Of a stretch of DNA of 54,901 nt, positions 687-7,947 are shown piece by piece. The stretch's first letter is position 1. Every line of letters begins with the position of its first letter. The stretch comes from Gammaproteobacteria bacterium (GTDB lineage Bacteria > Pseudomonadota > Gammaproteobacteria > JAPPPA01). Position numbers and translations under genes: made by a program. The notes under the pieces were generated by a model. It was not told the origin of the DNA, did not search any database, and saw only the letters and a program-made list of their open reading frames with translations. The stretch covers positions 125,100 through 180,000 of the forward strand of contig JAUHZK010000004.1 of the NCBI GenBank assembly GCA_030425645.1, written 5' to 3'.

Positions 687-2210
687 TTAGAACGAATGGC
701 GAACTAGGAAGAAGAAGTCTGCTTCTAGTGATTCGTTAACTACGTTGCCGTTCTCGTCTTCATCGTCAATCGGCTCTGCTGCGATTAACTCAAGTGAGGT
801 GTTGTTGCCGTACTGCAAGGAGGCGCGTAGGCCAACGTCGCTTAGGTCGTCAGACGAGCCGTCGACAGCGTTCTGCGCTTCGCCTTGTTCAAAGAACACC
901 GACAAAGTTGGACGCAATTGGCCAACTGGGTTGCCGCGCCATACGAATGCGGCACGAGCAAAGTGGCCTTCGTCAGACGCTAGAATGCCTGGGAACCAAG
1001 CGCTTAGTGATGACAGGCCGCCAAGTACCCACTGTTGGTGACGTGGCACCGCCAAGTCGTCTTCAGTGTATTGAGCAAGAAAATCTAAGTCGGCCCAGAA
1101 ATTGCCAAATAGCGAGAACTTGCCGCCGATTTCCGGCTTGTAGATGGTGAACTTAGTGTCGCCATTGGCAGCGCCACTGCTGTCGTCGCCATGGAGGCCT
1201 TGCTTAACAGATAGGCGGGCAACGGCGCGGCTAAGATTGCCTACTCGCTGCAACCAAGTAAGACCTAAGCTGGCGTAGCTGTGTGGCTCGTCACGTTCGG
1301 TGGCGCCTTTGGTTTGGTCTTCAACGTGACCAATCACTTCACGCAAACTTAGGCGGGTGCGGTCGCTGCGCCACAGCATTTGCTCACCAGTAGCGGAAAT
1401 ATCAACCAAGACGTTCTCATTTTTGCCATTGGCGTCATTAAAACCAAAACGGGTTTGGTTGTACGACAGGCCATATAGACCGTACTGAGTAGGTTGGTCC
1501 AGGCTGATGAGGTAGCGGTTGTAGTCAAGACCACCATTGAGATCGCGTTCTGAGCTTAGGCTGGTGATGGCGGTTTCCCAGCCGATGTTTAGCTGCGCAC
1601 CGTTATCAAACTGTTGGCTAAGCTCAATGTTACCGAAGTAACGACCAACAAAGCGGTTGCCTGGGTTACCTAAAGTGAGGGTAACGCCGGTGGCTTGGTG
1701 GTCTTCGTTTTCTTGGCTTTCCATCACGATAGTGATGTTCTCGGGCTGGTTAGGCTCCATGTGGTAACGAAGGTTTAGGTCAAAACCAGCACGCTCAGAT
1801 TTGAGGTTAGCTAGTAGACGTGCATCTTCGAACTCGTCACGCGTTAGGTTTTCGTCGCCAATTAGATGGTCAAAAAACGGGTAAACGCTTTCTGGCGCGA
1901 TGATGTTGGCTAGGCTGCCTTCGGTAACGCCGATCACAAGCTTCTGGCCGTCAACGGCATATTGCAGTGAGACCAGTAGGTGGCCTGCTTGCCAGTAGGC
2001 GTTGTTCAAGTTCAGAACAGCTTGCGAAGGGTTGCCGGCTTCGCTTAGTGCGGCGGCAATTTGGTCGTGGCTAAGTAGCGTGTTGCCGTGAACGTTAACC
2101 ACGATATCGCCTACCTGGCCTTCGTAGCTGTTGCCTTGGCCCGCTTGTTGCGTAGCGAACTCGACAGTCGCCAGCTGCGGTGGAATGGCTGGAGGTAAAT
2201 CAATCGCCAT
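687..2210 (-). CDS. TpsB-like (ShlB/FhaC/HecB family) outer-membrane barrel protein, divergent
   Basis: 507 residues. A POTRA-like segment covers about residues 35-98 (VHGNTLLSHDQI...VTEGSL). A long beta-barrel-like region follows from about 180 and ends in a terminal Phe, as in many outer-membrane proteins. Residues 390-420 align with the conserved lid-loop region of two-partner secretion transporters (RHQQWVLGGLSSL...DEGHFARA), but the usual SVRGY/F core is replaced by SLSAW. The start at 2210 has an AAAGGA Shine-Dalgarno, yet no signal peptide is visible. This is odd, because a barrel must cross the inner membrane. It starts 34 bases after the OmpA-family gene, so the two are probably cotranscribed. 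By family, the role would be moving a partner protein across the outer membrane. The partner is not proven; the glycine-rich protein upstream is the obvious candidate. Confidence 0.72.
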   Translation of the reverse strand: MAIDLPPAIPPQLATVEFATQQAGQGNSYEGQVGDIVVNVHGNTLLSHDQIAAALSEAGNPSQAVLNLNNAYWQAGHLLVSLQYAVDGQKLVIGVTEGSLANIIAPESVYPFFDHLIGDENLTRDEFEDARLLANLKSERAGFDLNLRYHMEPNQPENITIVMESQENEDHQATGVTLTLGNPGNRFVGRYFGNIELSQQFDNGAQLNIGWETAITSLSSERDLNGGLDYNRYLISLDQPTQYGLYGLSYNQTRFGFNDANGKNENVLVDISATGEQMLWRSDRTRLSLREVIGHVEDQTKGATERDEPHSYASLGLTWLQRVGNLSRAVARLSVKQGLHGDDSSGAANGDTKFTIYKPEIGGKFSLFGNFWADLDFLAQYTEDDLAVPRHQQWVLGGLSSLSAWFPGILASDEGHFARAAFVWRGNPVGQLRPTLSVFFEQGEAQNAVDGSSDDLSDVGLRASLQYGNNTSLELIAAEPIDDEDENGNVVNESLEADFFFLVRHSF

Positions 2211-2244
2211 GATGTATTCCTTTGTGTCTTTGTATGACTACGGT

Positions 2245-3375
2245 TTATTTTTCAGCGGCGCGTAGTTCAACGCGGCGGTTGCGAGCACGGCCTTCGGTAT
2301 TGTCTGAACCGTCGGCGTTGCTGTTGTCGGCGATCGGGTCGCTTTCGCCATAGCCTTGGTAGCTAAGACGCTGCGAAGAAATGCCTTTGCTAAGCAGGTA
2401 CTCGTAAACCGCTTGTGCGCGTAGAGTCGATAGGTTCAGGTTGTAGCTGAAGCTGCCTTTACCGTCTGTGTGACCCGCAACTTCCACCGGAACGCCAGCG
2501 TAGGCGTGTAGGGTTTCGGCAGCGCGATCAAGGATTGGGTAAGAAGTGGTGGTTAGTTCAGCACTGTCGAACTCAAACTCAACGCCTTCCAGAATCATCG
2601 GTGCCTCAGCTGTGATCGGCGCAGCGGCAGGGCCGCTTGGTGTGCAGCCTTTGCCGTCAACCTCGACGCCAACCGGGGTGTTGGCACACTGGTCGCCAAA
2701 GTCGCAAACGCCATCAAAGTCAGCGTCGGCGCATGGCACGTTGCTGGTCCAGTCAGAGGTGGCTGGGCGTTGGGCAACTTTAACGTTACGGTAGTTTTGC
2801 TGACCGTCTAGGGTTGGGTTTAGCGGCTTCGCTGCGCCAAATGGGATCTCGATACCCAGGCTTACCACGTGGTTAACTGGCTCGCTATCGGTACCATCGG
2901 CTTGACTGCGACGAGCACGGTATTCAGTACGAATGCTGCTGCCGTGTTCGGTAAAGGCGTGTACGTAGCCGACACCTAGGTCGATAAAGTCGCTGTCATC
3001 GTTGCTTAGCGACTCGTCGTCACCAATAGAGTAGGCAACCAAACCGTAAAACGGCATGGTGTAGCGGCCTGGGAATAGACGTGCTGCTAGGCCGTAGCCT
3101 TGGTAATCCAGTTTGTTGCCGCCACTGTCTTTTGCTTCTGCACGAAAGGCTTGTAGCTCAAGGTCTAGCCAGCTAAAAATCGGCTTACCTAGGCTGATTG
3201 TGTAGCCTTCTTGGTCTTGCAGGTTGCTGTCGCTATCAAAGTAGTTGTAGTTGGCTTGAAAAGCGCCATAAAAACGCTTGTCGATACCGTGGCCGTGGTC
3301 GTCGGCGTGGCTCACGAGGGTGGTGCTAAGTGCTGTTGCTGCCAATAGGCCGGTAAGCAAGGTGCGTGTATTCAC
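2245..3375 (-). CDS. OmpA-family protein with thrombospondin type-3 calcium repeat
   Basis: 376 residues. A signal peptide (about 1-24) is followed by a beta-rich domain to about residue 180 that resembles an eight-stranded OmpA barrel. Next comes a short linker with a thrombospondin type-3 calcium-binding stretch (about 217-244: DADFDGVCDFGDQC...DGKGC). The C-terminal OmpA peptidoglycan-binding domain (about 262-374) has FEFDSAEL, GHTDGKGS and GRARNRRVEL. It should sit in the outer membrane and hold the peptidoglycan. It lies between the glycine-rich secreted protein and the TpsB-like barrel, but a terminator separates it from the glycine-rich gene, so it probably has its own promoter in 3376-3416. 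Leucines are often encoded by CTA, as in other likely highly expressed genes here. Confidence 0.88.
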   Translation of the reverse strand: MNTRTLLTGLLAATALSTTLVSHADDHGHGIDKRFYGAFQANYNYFDSDSNLQDQEGYTISLGKPIFSWLDLELQAFRAEAKDSGGNKLDYQGYGLAARLFPGRYTMPFYGLVAYSIGDDESLSNDDSDFIDLGVGYVHAFTEHGSSIRTEYRARRSQADGTDSEPVNHVVSLGIEIPFGAAKPLNPTLDGQQNYRNVKVAQRPATSDWTSNVPCADADFDGVCDFGDQCANTPVGVEVDGKGCTPSGPAAAPITAEAPMILEGVEFEFDSAELTTTSYPILDRAAETLHAYAGVPVEVAGHTDGKGSFSYNLNLSTLRAQAVYEYLLSKGISSQRLSYQGYGESDPIADNSNADGSDNTEGRARNRRVELRAAEK

Positions 3376-3416
3376 CGAGTGGCTCCCATAAAAATAAAAT
3401 TTAATTAAGTGTTCTG

Positions 3417-3445
3417 AAAACGGGCCGTAGAAACGGCCCGTTTTT
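3417..3445. terminator. Hairpin terminator downstream of the glycine-rich gene
   Basis: An 8-bp stem (CGGGCCGT, 3421-3428, with ACGGCCCG, 3433-3440) has an AGAA loop, an A-run before and a T-run after. It can end minus-strand transcription of the glycine-rich protein gene before the OmpA gene begins. Confidence 0.8.
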
Positions 3446-3482
3446 GATGGATTTGCTGAATGTTCTCAGTAATCTCTGACTG

Positions 3483-4784
3483 CTAAAGTCGGACGTCTTT
3501 ACAGCCTTCATCACCCGCATTGCGTGAGCTGAACTGCGTTAGTTGGCCAGCGCCTTGTAAACCAGTGTCATTGTGATCGGCATCGGTGCCGCAGGTTTGC
3601 TCGGTTTGATTGTTGTTGCTAACAGGAACGTCAACAGGCGGCTTAGGAATCACACCGCAGTCTGGCCCGGTGCAACCAGTGTTGCTACCGTTGTTGTTGG
3701 CTACGCCAGCGCTTAGTAGGCCGCCGCCGTTGCGAGCAGAGCCTTCGCCACTGTTGGCTGCGCCAACATTGATGTCGCCACCTTTGCCGCCGTTGCCGCC
3801 ACTAATGGCGCCTAGGCTTAGTAGGCCGTTGCCTCCAGCATCGTCACCTGCAAAGGCACCAGCGCCAACAACTTCGCCGTCGCCTTGGCCGCTGTTATCA
3901 CCAATAATGCCAGCGTTAATATCGCTGCCGTTACCGCCGTTGCTGTCACCGGTCACAATCGCATTTAGCAGGCTGCCGGCACCGGCGTTACTAGTGCCGT
4001 CGCCATCAATGCCGACGCCAGCTACTGCGGCTAGTTGATCGGTAACTGGAGCTAGCGCATCACCCAGCGGTGCTACTAGCGCGCCGTCTAGAGTGGTTAC
4101 GAGACCTTCTAGTGGGCCGCTGATTTGGCCGCCGCGCTGTAGGCCGCTTTGCAGGCCATCACGCAATGGTGCGCCTAGAGCGTCTGTTAGTGCGGTGCCA
4201 GAAACGCCGGTCGGGTTAGGAATAATGTCCTGTGACTGACCCGCTAGGCCTGAATTAAGGCCAAGTACGGTATCGCCATTAAGTAGCTCAACACCCAATA
4301 GACCACCTTGGCCGCTGGTGCCGCCGCCATCAGATAGCGCCGACAGTCCTACTAGACCGCCGTTGCCGGAGTTGTCGCCAGTTAAGGCACCAACGCCAAC
4401 CAGGCCGCTATTGCCGCTGCTGCCGCTTTGTAGCGCGCCGAGGCCCACGAGGCCGCCAGTGCCGCTGGCGCCGTTTTGGTTGTCATTGCCCGCGCCAATG
4501 CCGATCAATTGACCGTTACCGGTGGCGGCGCCTTCAAAGGCGCCGAGGCCAATTAGGCTGTTGCCGTTGGCGTCGACGGTTGGCAGCGTAACAAGTTCGC
4601 CTAGTGGGCTGCTGTTAAGTCCGCCGGTAAGCGTATTAAGTGCCGAGCCTGCGCCCGCCGTTAAACCCGACCCCGCGCCAAGCTGGCCACTGACGGTGCC
4701 TAATAAATCGGCTAGTGGGCCGGCCATGGCACCACCGCTAACAAAACCAAGTGTTAACGCGGCTGCTGAAAATTGTTTCTTCAT
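3483..4784 (-). CDS. Secreted glycine-rich repeat protein, function unknown
   Basis: 433 residues. A clear signal peptide is present (MKKQFSAAALTLGFVSGGAMA, cleavage about 21/22). Two blocks of degenerate ~17-residue repeats lie at about 76-170 (GLVGLGAL followed by Gly/Asn/Ser-rich turns, about six copies) and about 268-365 (GAGAFAGD, LLSLGAIS, DINVGA types, about six copies). A helix-prone linker at 195-258 (ALTDALGAPLRDGLQSGLQ...) separates them. The C-terminal tail has four cysteines (371, 376, 398, 428) and a proline-rich stretch. The composition suggests an extracellular fibre or stacked-turn structure. I do not recognise a named family and see no TPS domain. Its neighbours are an OmpA-family protein and a TpsB-like transporter, so it may be exported to the cell surface; this is inference. 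Confidence 0.75.
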   Translation of the reverse strand: MKKQFSAAALTLGFVSGGAMAGPLADLLGTVSGQLGAGSGLTAGAGSALNTLTGGLNSSPLGELVTLPTVDANGNSLIGLGAFEGAATGNGQLIGIGAGNDNQNGASGTGGLVGLGALQSGSSGNSGLVGVGALTGDNSGNGGLVGLSALSDGGGTSGQGGLLGVELLNGDTVLGLNSGLAGQSQDIIPNPTGVSGTALTDALGAPLRDGLQSGLQRGGQISGPLEGLVTTLDGALVAPLGDALAPVTDQLAAVAGVGIDGDGTSNAGAGSLLNAIVTGDSNGGNGSDINAGIIGDNSGQGDGEVVGAGAFAGDDAGGNGLLSLGAISGGNGGKGGDINVGAANSGEGSARNGGGLLSAGVANNNGSNTGCTGPDCGVIPKPPVDVPVSNNNQTEQTCGTDADHNDTGLQGAGQLTQFSSRNAGDEGCKDVRL

Positions 4785-7190: not shown

Positions 7191-7224
7191 GTCATATATA
7201 TGACTTCGGTTTTTGTACAAAACC
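7191..7224. promoter_or_regulatory. Two adjacent palindromes upstream of the porin gene
   Basis: A perfect 14-bp palindrome, GTCATATATATGAC (7191-7204), is followed four bases later by GGTTTT-TGTAC-AAAACC (7208-7224). Both lie in the 258-bp space between divergent rep and the porin gene, 64-97 bases before the porin start. Two such symmetric sites in an AT-rich promoter region suggest operators for a dimeric regulator. The regulator is unknown. Confidence 0.4.
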
Positions 7225-7287
7225 AGCCTGTGGAATTCAGTTGACGGGGTTCTACAGGGATTTACTAATAAACTTGGAGAGTGCTCA

Positions 7288-7947
7288 ATGTTTAAAAAAG
7301 CTCTATTAGCTAGTGCTGCTGTAATGGCTGCTGGCGTTGCATCTGCTGAAGTGACTGGTAACTTCGCAATTACTTCTGACTACATCTTCCGTGGCGTATC
7401 TAGCGGTCAAGCTGTACAAGGTGGTCTTGATTGGTCACACGACAGCGGTGCTTACGCTGGCGTATGGCTATCTAACGCTGCTATTGACGACGATACTGAA
7501 AATGAAGATGAAGTTAACTACTACGTAGGTTACGGCCTTGGCTTGAATGACGGTCTAAGCCTAGACCTAGGTTACATTCGTTACACATCTGACGAGTCTA
7601 CCGACGGTGACATCAATGAAGTTTACGTTGGTGTGGCTGGCGAAGCTTGGAGTGCAACTCTGTACTACGGTGACGAAGAGCGCGCAGACAGTACTGAAGA
7701 AGATGAGTTCTACTACCTAGACTTGGGTTACGACGTTGCTTGTGGCGAAACCACCAGTGTTAGCTTGCACGCTGGTTACCTTAGCGACGAGGCTGACGAC
7801 AACGATGCGATTGACCTATCTGTTACTTACAACGTAGGTGACTTCTCAATGGGTCTAAGCTATCTAGATCACGACGACGACGGCGCAGATGACGACGAAG
7901 ACGTTCTGATGGTTGTTGGTTGGGGCACCGAGTTTGACGTTAAGTAA
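7288..7947 (+). CDS. TorF-family putative porin (TIGR02001/Gcw_chp type)
   Basis: 219 residues from the ATG at 7288, which has a GGAG Shine-Dalgarno and begins a clean signal peptide (MFKKALLASAAVMAAGVASA). A longer open frame from 7213 exists but would bury the signal peptide. The mature start, VTGNFAITSDYIFRGVSSGQAVQGGLDWSH, is the hallmark of the TIGR02001 family, predicted outer-membrane barrels of unknown substrate. The barrel is very acidic, with many Asp/Glu runs in loops, which suits a marine protein. Codon use is strongly biased, with about half the leucines CTA, suggesting high expression. A strong terminator follows. Confidence 0.85.
   Translation: MFKKALLASAAVMAAGVASAEVTGNFAITSDYIFRGVSSGQAVQGGLDWSHDSGAYAGVWLSNAAIDDDTENEDEVNYYVGYGLGLNDGLSLDLGYIRYTSDESTDGDINEVYVGVAGEAWSATLYYGDEERADSTEEDEFYYLDLGYDVACGETTSVSLHAGYLSDEADDNDAIDLSVTYNVGDFSMGLSYLDHDDDGADDDEDVLMVVGWGTEFDVK

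What the first reader, a model, noticed from the sequence alone, without database searches (positions are those of the whole stretch)
687..4784. Three-gene surface cluster: glycine-rich repeat protein, OmpA/TSP3 protein and divergent TpsB-like barrel
Seen: three adjacent minus-strand genes encode a signal-peptide-bearing Gly-rich repeat protein, an OmpA-domain protein with a calcium-binding TSP3 stretch, and a ShlB/FhaC-like barrel with a POTRA-like segment. Known: TpsB barrels export large TpsA proteins that carry an N-terminal TPS domain. Here the nearest candidate cargo has no TPS domain, only ~17-residue Gly/Asn-rich repeats. Inference: this may be a separate export system for a fibre-like surface protein, with the OmpA protein tying the barrel to the wall. 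I cannot name this combination from memory.
Basis: partly seen in the sequence, partly recalled or inferred. Interest (0 to 1): 0.65.

Follow-up and report, generated by a model that had tools for sequence, protein, structure and literature searches.

The report
Signal-less exporter barrel with wall-anchored partner
Three neighbouring genes encode a repeat-rich secreted protein, a cell-wall-binding protein and an outer-membrane export channel; the set recurs in related marine bacteria, and the channel belongs to a family of over 70 proteins that all lack the usual 'export me' tag and begin instead with the same short, strongly conserved peptide.

Summary
The three genes are real and at the stated coordinates. 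The barrel (687-2210) is predicted as a TpsB fold: two POTRA domains and 16 strands, nearest solved structures CdiB and FhaC. It belongs to a well-separated clade: 73 full-length copies in 21 of 21 Spongiibacteraceae genomes, plus a few other gammaproteobacteria. Of 55 barrels examined, 48 have an OmpA-domain gene directly upstream (18-209 nt). In Spongiibacteraceae the repeats and the TSP3/OmpA part are often one protein, so the wall anchor belongs to the cargo rather than to the barrel.

(1) No barrel shows a recognisable signal peptide; all 55 start with MAIDLPPxxPPQ or a variant, whereas twelve ordinary TpsBs have signal-like N-termini. (2) The Omp85 lid-lock pair is replaced: no Arg in the L6 motif, Glu for Asp, in all 55. 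(3) One clade member sits beside a gene with a true TPS domain (TIGR01901), which supports an exporter role.

Best explanation: a two-partner-like exporter displays the repeat protein, whose C-terminus is held back by a Cys-bearing tail or a peptidoglycan-binding OmpA domain. How the barrel crosses the inner membrane is unknown. New variant of a known kind; no experiment exists.

The parts
687..2210 (-). Divergent TpsB-like barrel, 507 aa, no recognisable signal peptide; two POTRA-like domains and a 16-stranded barrel, C-terminal Phe
   Evidence: AF2; Foldseek: CdiB, FhaC; PF03865 in 12 of 13 relatives
2175..2210 (-). Codons of the conserved start peptide MAIDLPPAIPPQ in place of a signal peptide
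   Evidence: 55 of 55 barrels carry the motif or a variant at the start; column conservation; 68 of 69 motif hits in 21 genomes are barrel start codons; 0 in control
1710..2132 (-). Two POTRA-like domains (about residues 27-167)
   Evidence: secondary structure; full-length structural alignment to FhaC and CdiB
987..1007 (-). L6 motif LSAWFPG where Omp85 proteins have (V/I)RG(Y/F); Arg absent
   Evidence: alignment, 0 Arg in 55; motif definition PMC4490367
882..896 (-). Strand-13 motif F-x-E-x-G where Omp85 proteins have (F/G)xDxG; Glu in 55 of 55
   Evidence: motif definition PMC4490367
2245..3375 (-). OmpA/OprF-like protein, 376 aa: signal peptide, N-terminal region that looks like an OM barrel (not tested), TSP3-like linker, OmpA peptidoglycan-binding domain
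2641..2730 (-). TSP3-like Asp-rich stretch CADADFDGVCDFGDQC
   Evidence: sequence; motif scan
2305..2577 (-). OmpA C-terminal domain (PF00691)
   Evidence: E 3.7e-21; (OprF C-terminal domain 5u1h)
3417..3444 (-). Terminator/attenuator-like hairpin between the repeat gene and the OmpA gene
   Evidence: -20.7 kcal/mol, z -7.4; similar hairpin with a changed stem in sister species L004
3483..4784 (-). Secreted Gly/Asn-rich repeat protein, 433 aa, signal peptide, 16-residue repeats; presumed cargo
3501..3674 (-). Cys-bearing C-terminal tail (C371, C376, C398, C428), the only cysteines of the protein; presumed C-terminal anchor
   Evidence: C-terminal Cys also in sister species, L013 and L086
2..622 (+). 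LuxR-type regulator (3' part; full 313-aa gene in L001), convergent with the barrel; also near the barrel in the sister species, L013 and L086
646..663 (+). Terminator-like site between the convergent LuxR gene and the barrel gene
   Evidence: the number of such sites in the region is close to the chance expectation

Best explanation
A two-partner-like (type Vb-like) export and display system. The repeat protein crosses the inner membrane by its Sec signal peptide and is threaded through the TpsB-fold barrel, after contact with its POTRA domains, to the surface. Its C-terminus is held back: in the window by a Cys-bearing tail, probably helped by the co-encoded OmpA/TSP3 protein; in Spongiibacteraceae directly by a fused TSP3 + peptidoglycan-binding OmpA domain. 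The result would be a surface protein tethered to the wall through its own exporter. The barrel is a divergent TpsB with changed lid-lock motifs that reaches the outer membrane without a recognisable signal peptide; a conserved N-terminus, MAIDLPPxxPPQ, stands in its place. Shown by computation: predicted fold, clade, gene linkage, fusions, absence of a detectable signal peptide, motif conservation, one TPS-domain neighbour. Inferred: export of the repeat protein, anchoring, outer-membrane location, and any role of the N-terminal peptide.
For: Predicted TpsB fold. 73 full-length clade members in 21 of 21 Spongiibacteraceae genomes, against partial matches at E >= 2e-17 elsewhere in the order. 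OmpA gene directly upstream of 48 of 55 barrels. Natural fusions of repeats + TSP3 + OmpA. A clade member next to a TPS-domain gene, TIGR01901 E 1e-9, above its cut-off. Signal peptides on the cargo proteins. C-terminal Cys tails in the unfused repeat proteins and secreted thioredoxin-like genes beside two of those clusters, echoing the disulfide C-terminal anchor described for some TpsA proteins (PMC5422565). No recognisable signal peptide in 55 of 55 barrels, with an upstream in-frame stop within 0-36 codons and SD-like sites in 51 of 55, while twelve ordinary TpsBs and the genome's own Omp85 proteins have hydrophobic N-termini.
Against: No TPS domain in the repeat protein, so the recognition signal is unknown. 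Many Spongiibacteraceae paralogs have short OmpA partners (267-375 aa) with little that could be exported. The Arg and Asp of the lid lock, conserved in Omp85 proteins, are absent, so the barrel may not translocate like FhaC. Without a signal peptide, outer-membrane location is not assured. The repeat fold was not resolved (pLDDT 43.6). The sister species' repeat gene carries an in-frame stop. Signal peptides were judged by hydropathy, not by SignalP.
Confidence: 0.5

Rival explanations
1. The barrel is an assembly factor or docking partner for the OmpA-domain protein and the pair is an outer-membrane-to-peptidoglycan tether; nothing large is exported and the repeats stay in the periplasm as a spacer.
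For: The most constant partner is the OmpA gene, not the repeats; many partners are short (267-375 aa); the lid-lock motifs differ from those of known translocases; the window's OmpA protein has its own N-terminal barrel-like region (sequence only).
Against: Clusters with a repeat protein but no OmpA gene found nearby (L086; L091 with another low-complexity secreted protein), and a member paired with a TPS-domain protein, fit export better; the fold is nearest to TpsB translocases rather than insertases.
Confidence: 0.27
2. An ordinary two-partner system that has drifted: the features are sequence divergence and the missing signal peptide has no special meaning (for example a weak signal not seen by hydropathy).
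For: Same fold, PF03865 in 12 of 13 relatives, one member with a TPS-domain partner.
Against: The missing signal peptide is shared by 55 of 55 members across several lineages; the start peptide is among the best-conserved stretches of the protein and is kept through synonymous change; ordinary TpsBs keep signal-like N-termini; Glu for Asp in 55 of 55 is not random drift.
Confidence: 0.17
3. The barrel is not an outer-membrane protein: it stays in the cytoplasm or is a decaying gene.
For: No detectable signal peptide.
Against: 2-5 intact copies in every Spongiibacteraceae genome searched, conserved POTRA and barrel, C-terminal aromatic residue in most members as in outer-membrane proteins, linkage to exported partners.
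Confidence: 0.06

Closest known systems
Two-partner secretion (type Vb) TpsB transporters: FhaC, CdiB, ShlB (PF03865)
   Same: Two POTRA domains and a 16-stranded barrel; paired with a secreted repeat-rich protein; one clade member has a TPS-domain partner
   Different: No recognisable signal peptide, conserved MAIDLPPxxPPQ-type start, no long N-terminal plug helix in the model, no Arg in L6, Glu for Asp on strand 13, cargo without TPS domain in the window, OmpA partner
HMW1- or HxuA-type TpsA with C-terminal disulfide anchor (PMC5422565)
   Same: Unfused repeat proteins have their only cysteines in the last ~65 residues
   Different: No TPS domain; disulfide not tested; fused relatives use an OmpA domain instead
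AtaA-TpgA: trimeric autotransporter adhesin with a peptidoglycan-binding periplasmic partner (PMC13082670)
   Same: A surface fibre partnered with a peptidoglycan-binding protein; relative L006 hits the TpgA model weakly through its OmpA domain
   Different: Type Vc trimeric autotransporter, not a TpsB barrel; here the binding domain can be fused to the cargo itself
OprF/OmpA outer-membrane proteins with TSP3-like linker
   Same: Domain layout of the 376-aa protein; OprF C-terminal domain among its PDB matches
   Different: Encoded as a fixed pair with the TpsB-like barrel; in Spongiibacteraceae the N-terminal barrel-like region is replaced by repeat or low-complexity sequence

Membership tests
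Two-partner secretion TpsB (type Vb) | Two POTRA domains followed by a 16-stranded barrel | tested here: met
   predicted structure
Two-partner secretion TpsB (type Vb) | ShlB (PF03865) profile match | tested here: inconclusive
   12 of 13 relatives match, best 8.3e-13, but the window protein does not
Two-partner secretion TpsB (type Vb) | TpsB-type POTRA profile (PF08479) | tested here: not met
   not listed for any of 13 members at E <= 1
Two-partner secretion TpsB (type Vb) | (V/I)RG(Y/F) at tip of L6 | tested here: not met
   0 of 55 with Arg at that position
Two-partner secretion TpsB (type Vb) | (G/F)xDxG on strand 13 | tested here: not met
   Glu in 55 of 55
Two-partner secretion TpsB (type Vb) | N-terminal Sec signal peptide | tested here: not met
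   0 of 55 by hydropathy and upstream-frame checks; ordinary TpsB controls have hydrophobic N-termini; SignalP not available
Two-partner secretion TpsB (type Vb) | N-terminal plug helix H1 | tested here: not met
   only a six-residue helix (16-21) before POTRA1 in the AF2 model; residues 1-5 below pLDDT 50
Two-partner secretion TpsB (type Vb) | Adjacent TpsA with TPS domain | tested here: not met
   none in the repeat protein; met in distant clade member G959. The genome-wide PF05860 search was uninformative because its controls failed
Two-partner secretion TpsB (type Vb) | Demonstrated export of a partner across the outer membrane | not testable with these tools
   needs experiment
OmpA family (peptidoglycan-binding) | PF00691 domain | tested here: met

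The most novel reading that the evidence does not exclude
A family of outer-membrane beta-barrels is delivered across the inner membrane without a classical signal peptide, using the N-terminal peptide MAIDLPPxxPPQ (or a route tied to it), and exports cargo whose C-terminus is fixed to peptidoglycan by a fused OmpA domain.
Probability: 0.3. Interest if true: 0.87.

Novelty: new variant of a known kind. Interest (0 to 1): 0.64.

Why it matters
Outer-membrane barrels are expected to start with a Sec signal peptide. Here an entire clade of more than 70 proteins, present in every Spongiibacteraceae genome searched, lacks a recognisable one and keeps a fixed 12-residue start instead, so either a new targeting route or a new use of the Sec route is directly testable. 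The changed lid lock gives a natural test of which Omp85 contacts are needed for translocation. The natural fusions of repeat cargo to a peptidoglycan-binding domain suggest a wall-tethered form of two-partner secretion that I did not find described in the library searched.

Tried and rejected
Pfam on the window barrel alone gave nothing even at E 10; the relatives supplied the PF03865 link. The genome-contig scan used N-terminal patterns, so it was biased towards MAIDLPPA starts; profile searches of whole genomes removed that bias. Readings considered and rejected: an upstream in-frame start (stops within 0-36 codons in all 55, no convincing hydrophobic leader); a fusion with the upstream gene (gaps of 18-209 nt); and the motif as a general export tag (only one hit outside barrels in 21 genomes, in an unrelated ORF). 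PF05860 genome search uninformative because control genomes gave no hit. AF2 of the fused repeat-OmpA protein L011 was poor, pLDDT 43.6, though short strands recur in the repeat region. No plasmid record matches the barrel. Paper searches found no account of TpsB-like barrels without a signal peptide or of TPS cargo fused to OmpA; passages read in the Omp85/TpsB survey PMC4104836 describe no such group. The 'LL..G' look of the mature cargo N-termini is too low in complexity to call a recognition motif.

Full report
Observation. The three minus-strand genes are present at the given coordinates. The 376-aa protein has an OmpA domain (PF00691, E 3.7e-21) preceded by a TSP3-like stretch; the 433-aa protein has a signal peptide and Gly/Asn-rich 16-residue repeats; the 507-aa protein hits no Pfam or NCBIfam family on its own. 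A strong hairpin, -20.7 kcal/mol and z -7.4, lies between the repeat gene and the OmpA gene, and the sister species has a similar hairpin with a changed stem. The set is therefore probably a cargo gene plus an OmpA-barrel pair with 34 nt between the two genes. A convergent LuxR-type regulator lies downstream.

What the barrel is. AlphaFold2 on an 11-sequence alignment gives pLDDT 81.6 and pTM 0.74, with two POTRA-like domains and 16 barrel strands. Foldseek's best solved structures are CdiB (6wil, 6wim) and FhaC (4ql0, 4qky), E 4e-20 to 5e-19, query TM 0.59-0.70. Twelve of 13 relatives match ShlB, PF03865, best 8.3e-13. Fold and relatives therefore place it in the TpsB group.

A separate clade. 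A profile of 13 relatives finds 73 full-length copies in 21 of 21 Spongiibacteraceae genomes, 2-5 per genome. In 391 genomes of the order the next matches drop to E 2e-17 or worse and cover only parts of the profile, mostly the C-terminal half. In a quick tree the clade, 57 rows including two distant members, is separated from 13 ordinary TpsBs by a branch of length 1.22 with SH-aLRT 100; some long branches inside it are unsure. Outside Spongiibacteraceae members occur in the window's genus (two genomes), a P11BWT0bin.6 MAG, an Abyssibacter MAG and families f85 and f181. The scan of 398 genomes across the phylum found only one further genome at E <= 1e-20, so the clade is rare.

No recognisable signal peptide. 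All 55 barrels in fetched loci begin at MAID[LF]PPxxPPQ or a variant. Upstream in-frame stops lie within 0-36 codons, the open leaders have no convincing hydrophobic core, and 51 of 55 have an SD-like site just upstream. Twelve ordinary TpsBs from the same order have hydrophobic N-termini (10-mer maxima 1.6-3.4, family median 1.22), and the genome's own Omp85 proteins do too. The start peptide is one of the two best-conserved 8-residue windows of the protein (0.875 against 0.882 for the L6 region). At DNA level its codons vary synonymously while the residues stay: the degenerate pattern hits 69 times in 21 genomes, 68 at barrel start codons, with none for the reversed control; the one other hit is in an unrelated ORF. 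SignalP was not available, so this rests on hydropathy and on the reading frames. The distant members G959 and G1409 lack a clear signal peptide too, but their starts are less certain.

Changed lid lock. Omp85 proteins share (V/I)RG(Y/F) at the tip of loop L6 and (F/G)xDxG on strand 13, joined by an Arg-Asp salt bridge (PMC4490367). In the clade the L6 motif reads (L/I)SA(Y/W)LPG and variants with no Arg in 55 of 55, and the strand-13 Asp is Glu in 55 of 55. Among twelve ordinary TpsB controls ten have Arg and two Lys at the L6 position.

Gene linkage and fusions. Of 55 barrels, 48 have an OmpA-domain gene immediately upstream on the same strand (gap 18-209 nt), two have it downstream and one nearby on the other strand; four have none in the stretch fetched, one of them (L005) only because that contig ends inside the OmpA gene. 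In Spongiibacteraceae the upstream protein is often a single chain of signal peptide, repeats or other low-complexity sequence, TSP3 and OmpA (L006, L010, L011, L012 and others), while other paralogs have a short N-terminal part. In the window's genus, P11BWT0bin.6 and family f85 the repeat and OmpA proteins are separate; an Abyssibacter cluster (L086) has the repeat protein, barrel and regulator but no OmpA gene nearby. These fusions tie the wall-binding domain to the cargo. Family f85 has the order barrel, repeat protein, OmpA.

A link to classical cargo. In G959 the clade member is followed by a gene with a signal peptide and a TPS domain (TIGR01901, E 1e-9, 38.2 bits against a cut-off of 29.1). 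This is the best evidence that the clade exports proteins. Pfam did not report the domain in that protein, and the genome-wide PF05860 search was uninformative because its controls failed.

C-terminal anchors. The unfused repeat proteins of the window, its sister species, L013 and L086 have their only cysteines in the last ~65 residues, and L013 and L086 carry a secreted thioredoxin-like gene beside the barrel. Some TpsA proteins are held at the surface by a C-terminal disulfide loop locked in the TpsB pore (PMC5422565). In the fused relatives a peptidoglycan-binding OmpA domain stands at that end. AtaA-TpgA is a precedent for coupling a surface fibre to peptidoglycan (PMC13082670). Whether either end acts as an anchor here is inference.

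Mechanism and rivals. The most likely reading is a two-partner-like exporter that displays a repeat-rich protein whose C-terminus stays in the periplasm or the pore (0.5). The main rival is an OM-wall tether in which the barrel assembles the OmpA protein and nothing large is exported (0.27). Ordinary drift of a TPS system (0.17) and a cytoplasmic or decaying barrel (0.06) are less likely. Not established: outer-membrane location, route across the inner membrane, export, repeat fold (AF2 of L011 failed, pLDDT 43.6), and any function of the start peptide.

Novelty. No paper found in the library describes TpsB-like barrels without a signal peptide or TPS-like cargo fused to OmpA; subscription papers are mostly absent from that library. 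It works like a TpsB but fails several defining features that were tested, so it is reported as a new variant and not filed as an ordinary member.

Noticed in passing
L004:1501-2673 (sister species G001): The sister species' repeat gene carries one in-frame TAA, so it may be interrupted or the draft assembly may be in error; the window's copy is open.
   Followed up: partly
L013:4612-5043 (-) and L086:9288-9734 (-): A secreted thioredoxin-like gene (WCGxC) sits beside the barrel and LuxR genes in two clusters whose repeat proteins have C-terminal cysteines.
   Followed up: partly
L073 and L076 (G376, G372): Two barrel-OmpA pairs lie in tandem within about 8 kb, suggesting local duplication.
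   Followed up: no
L010, L012, L072, L088, L093, L097, L106, L109: Upstream OmpA proteins with long Asp/Pro/Val-rich repeats (about 110-126 residues in L010 and L012) instead of the 16-residue Gly/Asn repeats; nature unknown.
   Followed up: partly
L014:7416-7874: In an Abyssibacter MAG the gene upstream of the barrel is a small secreted EF-hand protein instead of an OmpA protein, another calcium-binding partner.
   Followed up: no
L018:11073-12176: The repeat protein of family f85 ends in a long run of GGD repeats.
   Followed up: no
window 7213-7947 (+): Gcw_chp-family protein (PF09694, E 1.7e-19), two genes away from the cluster.
   Followed up: no
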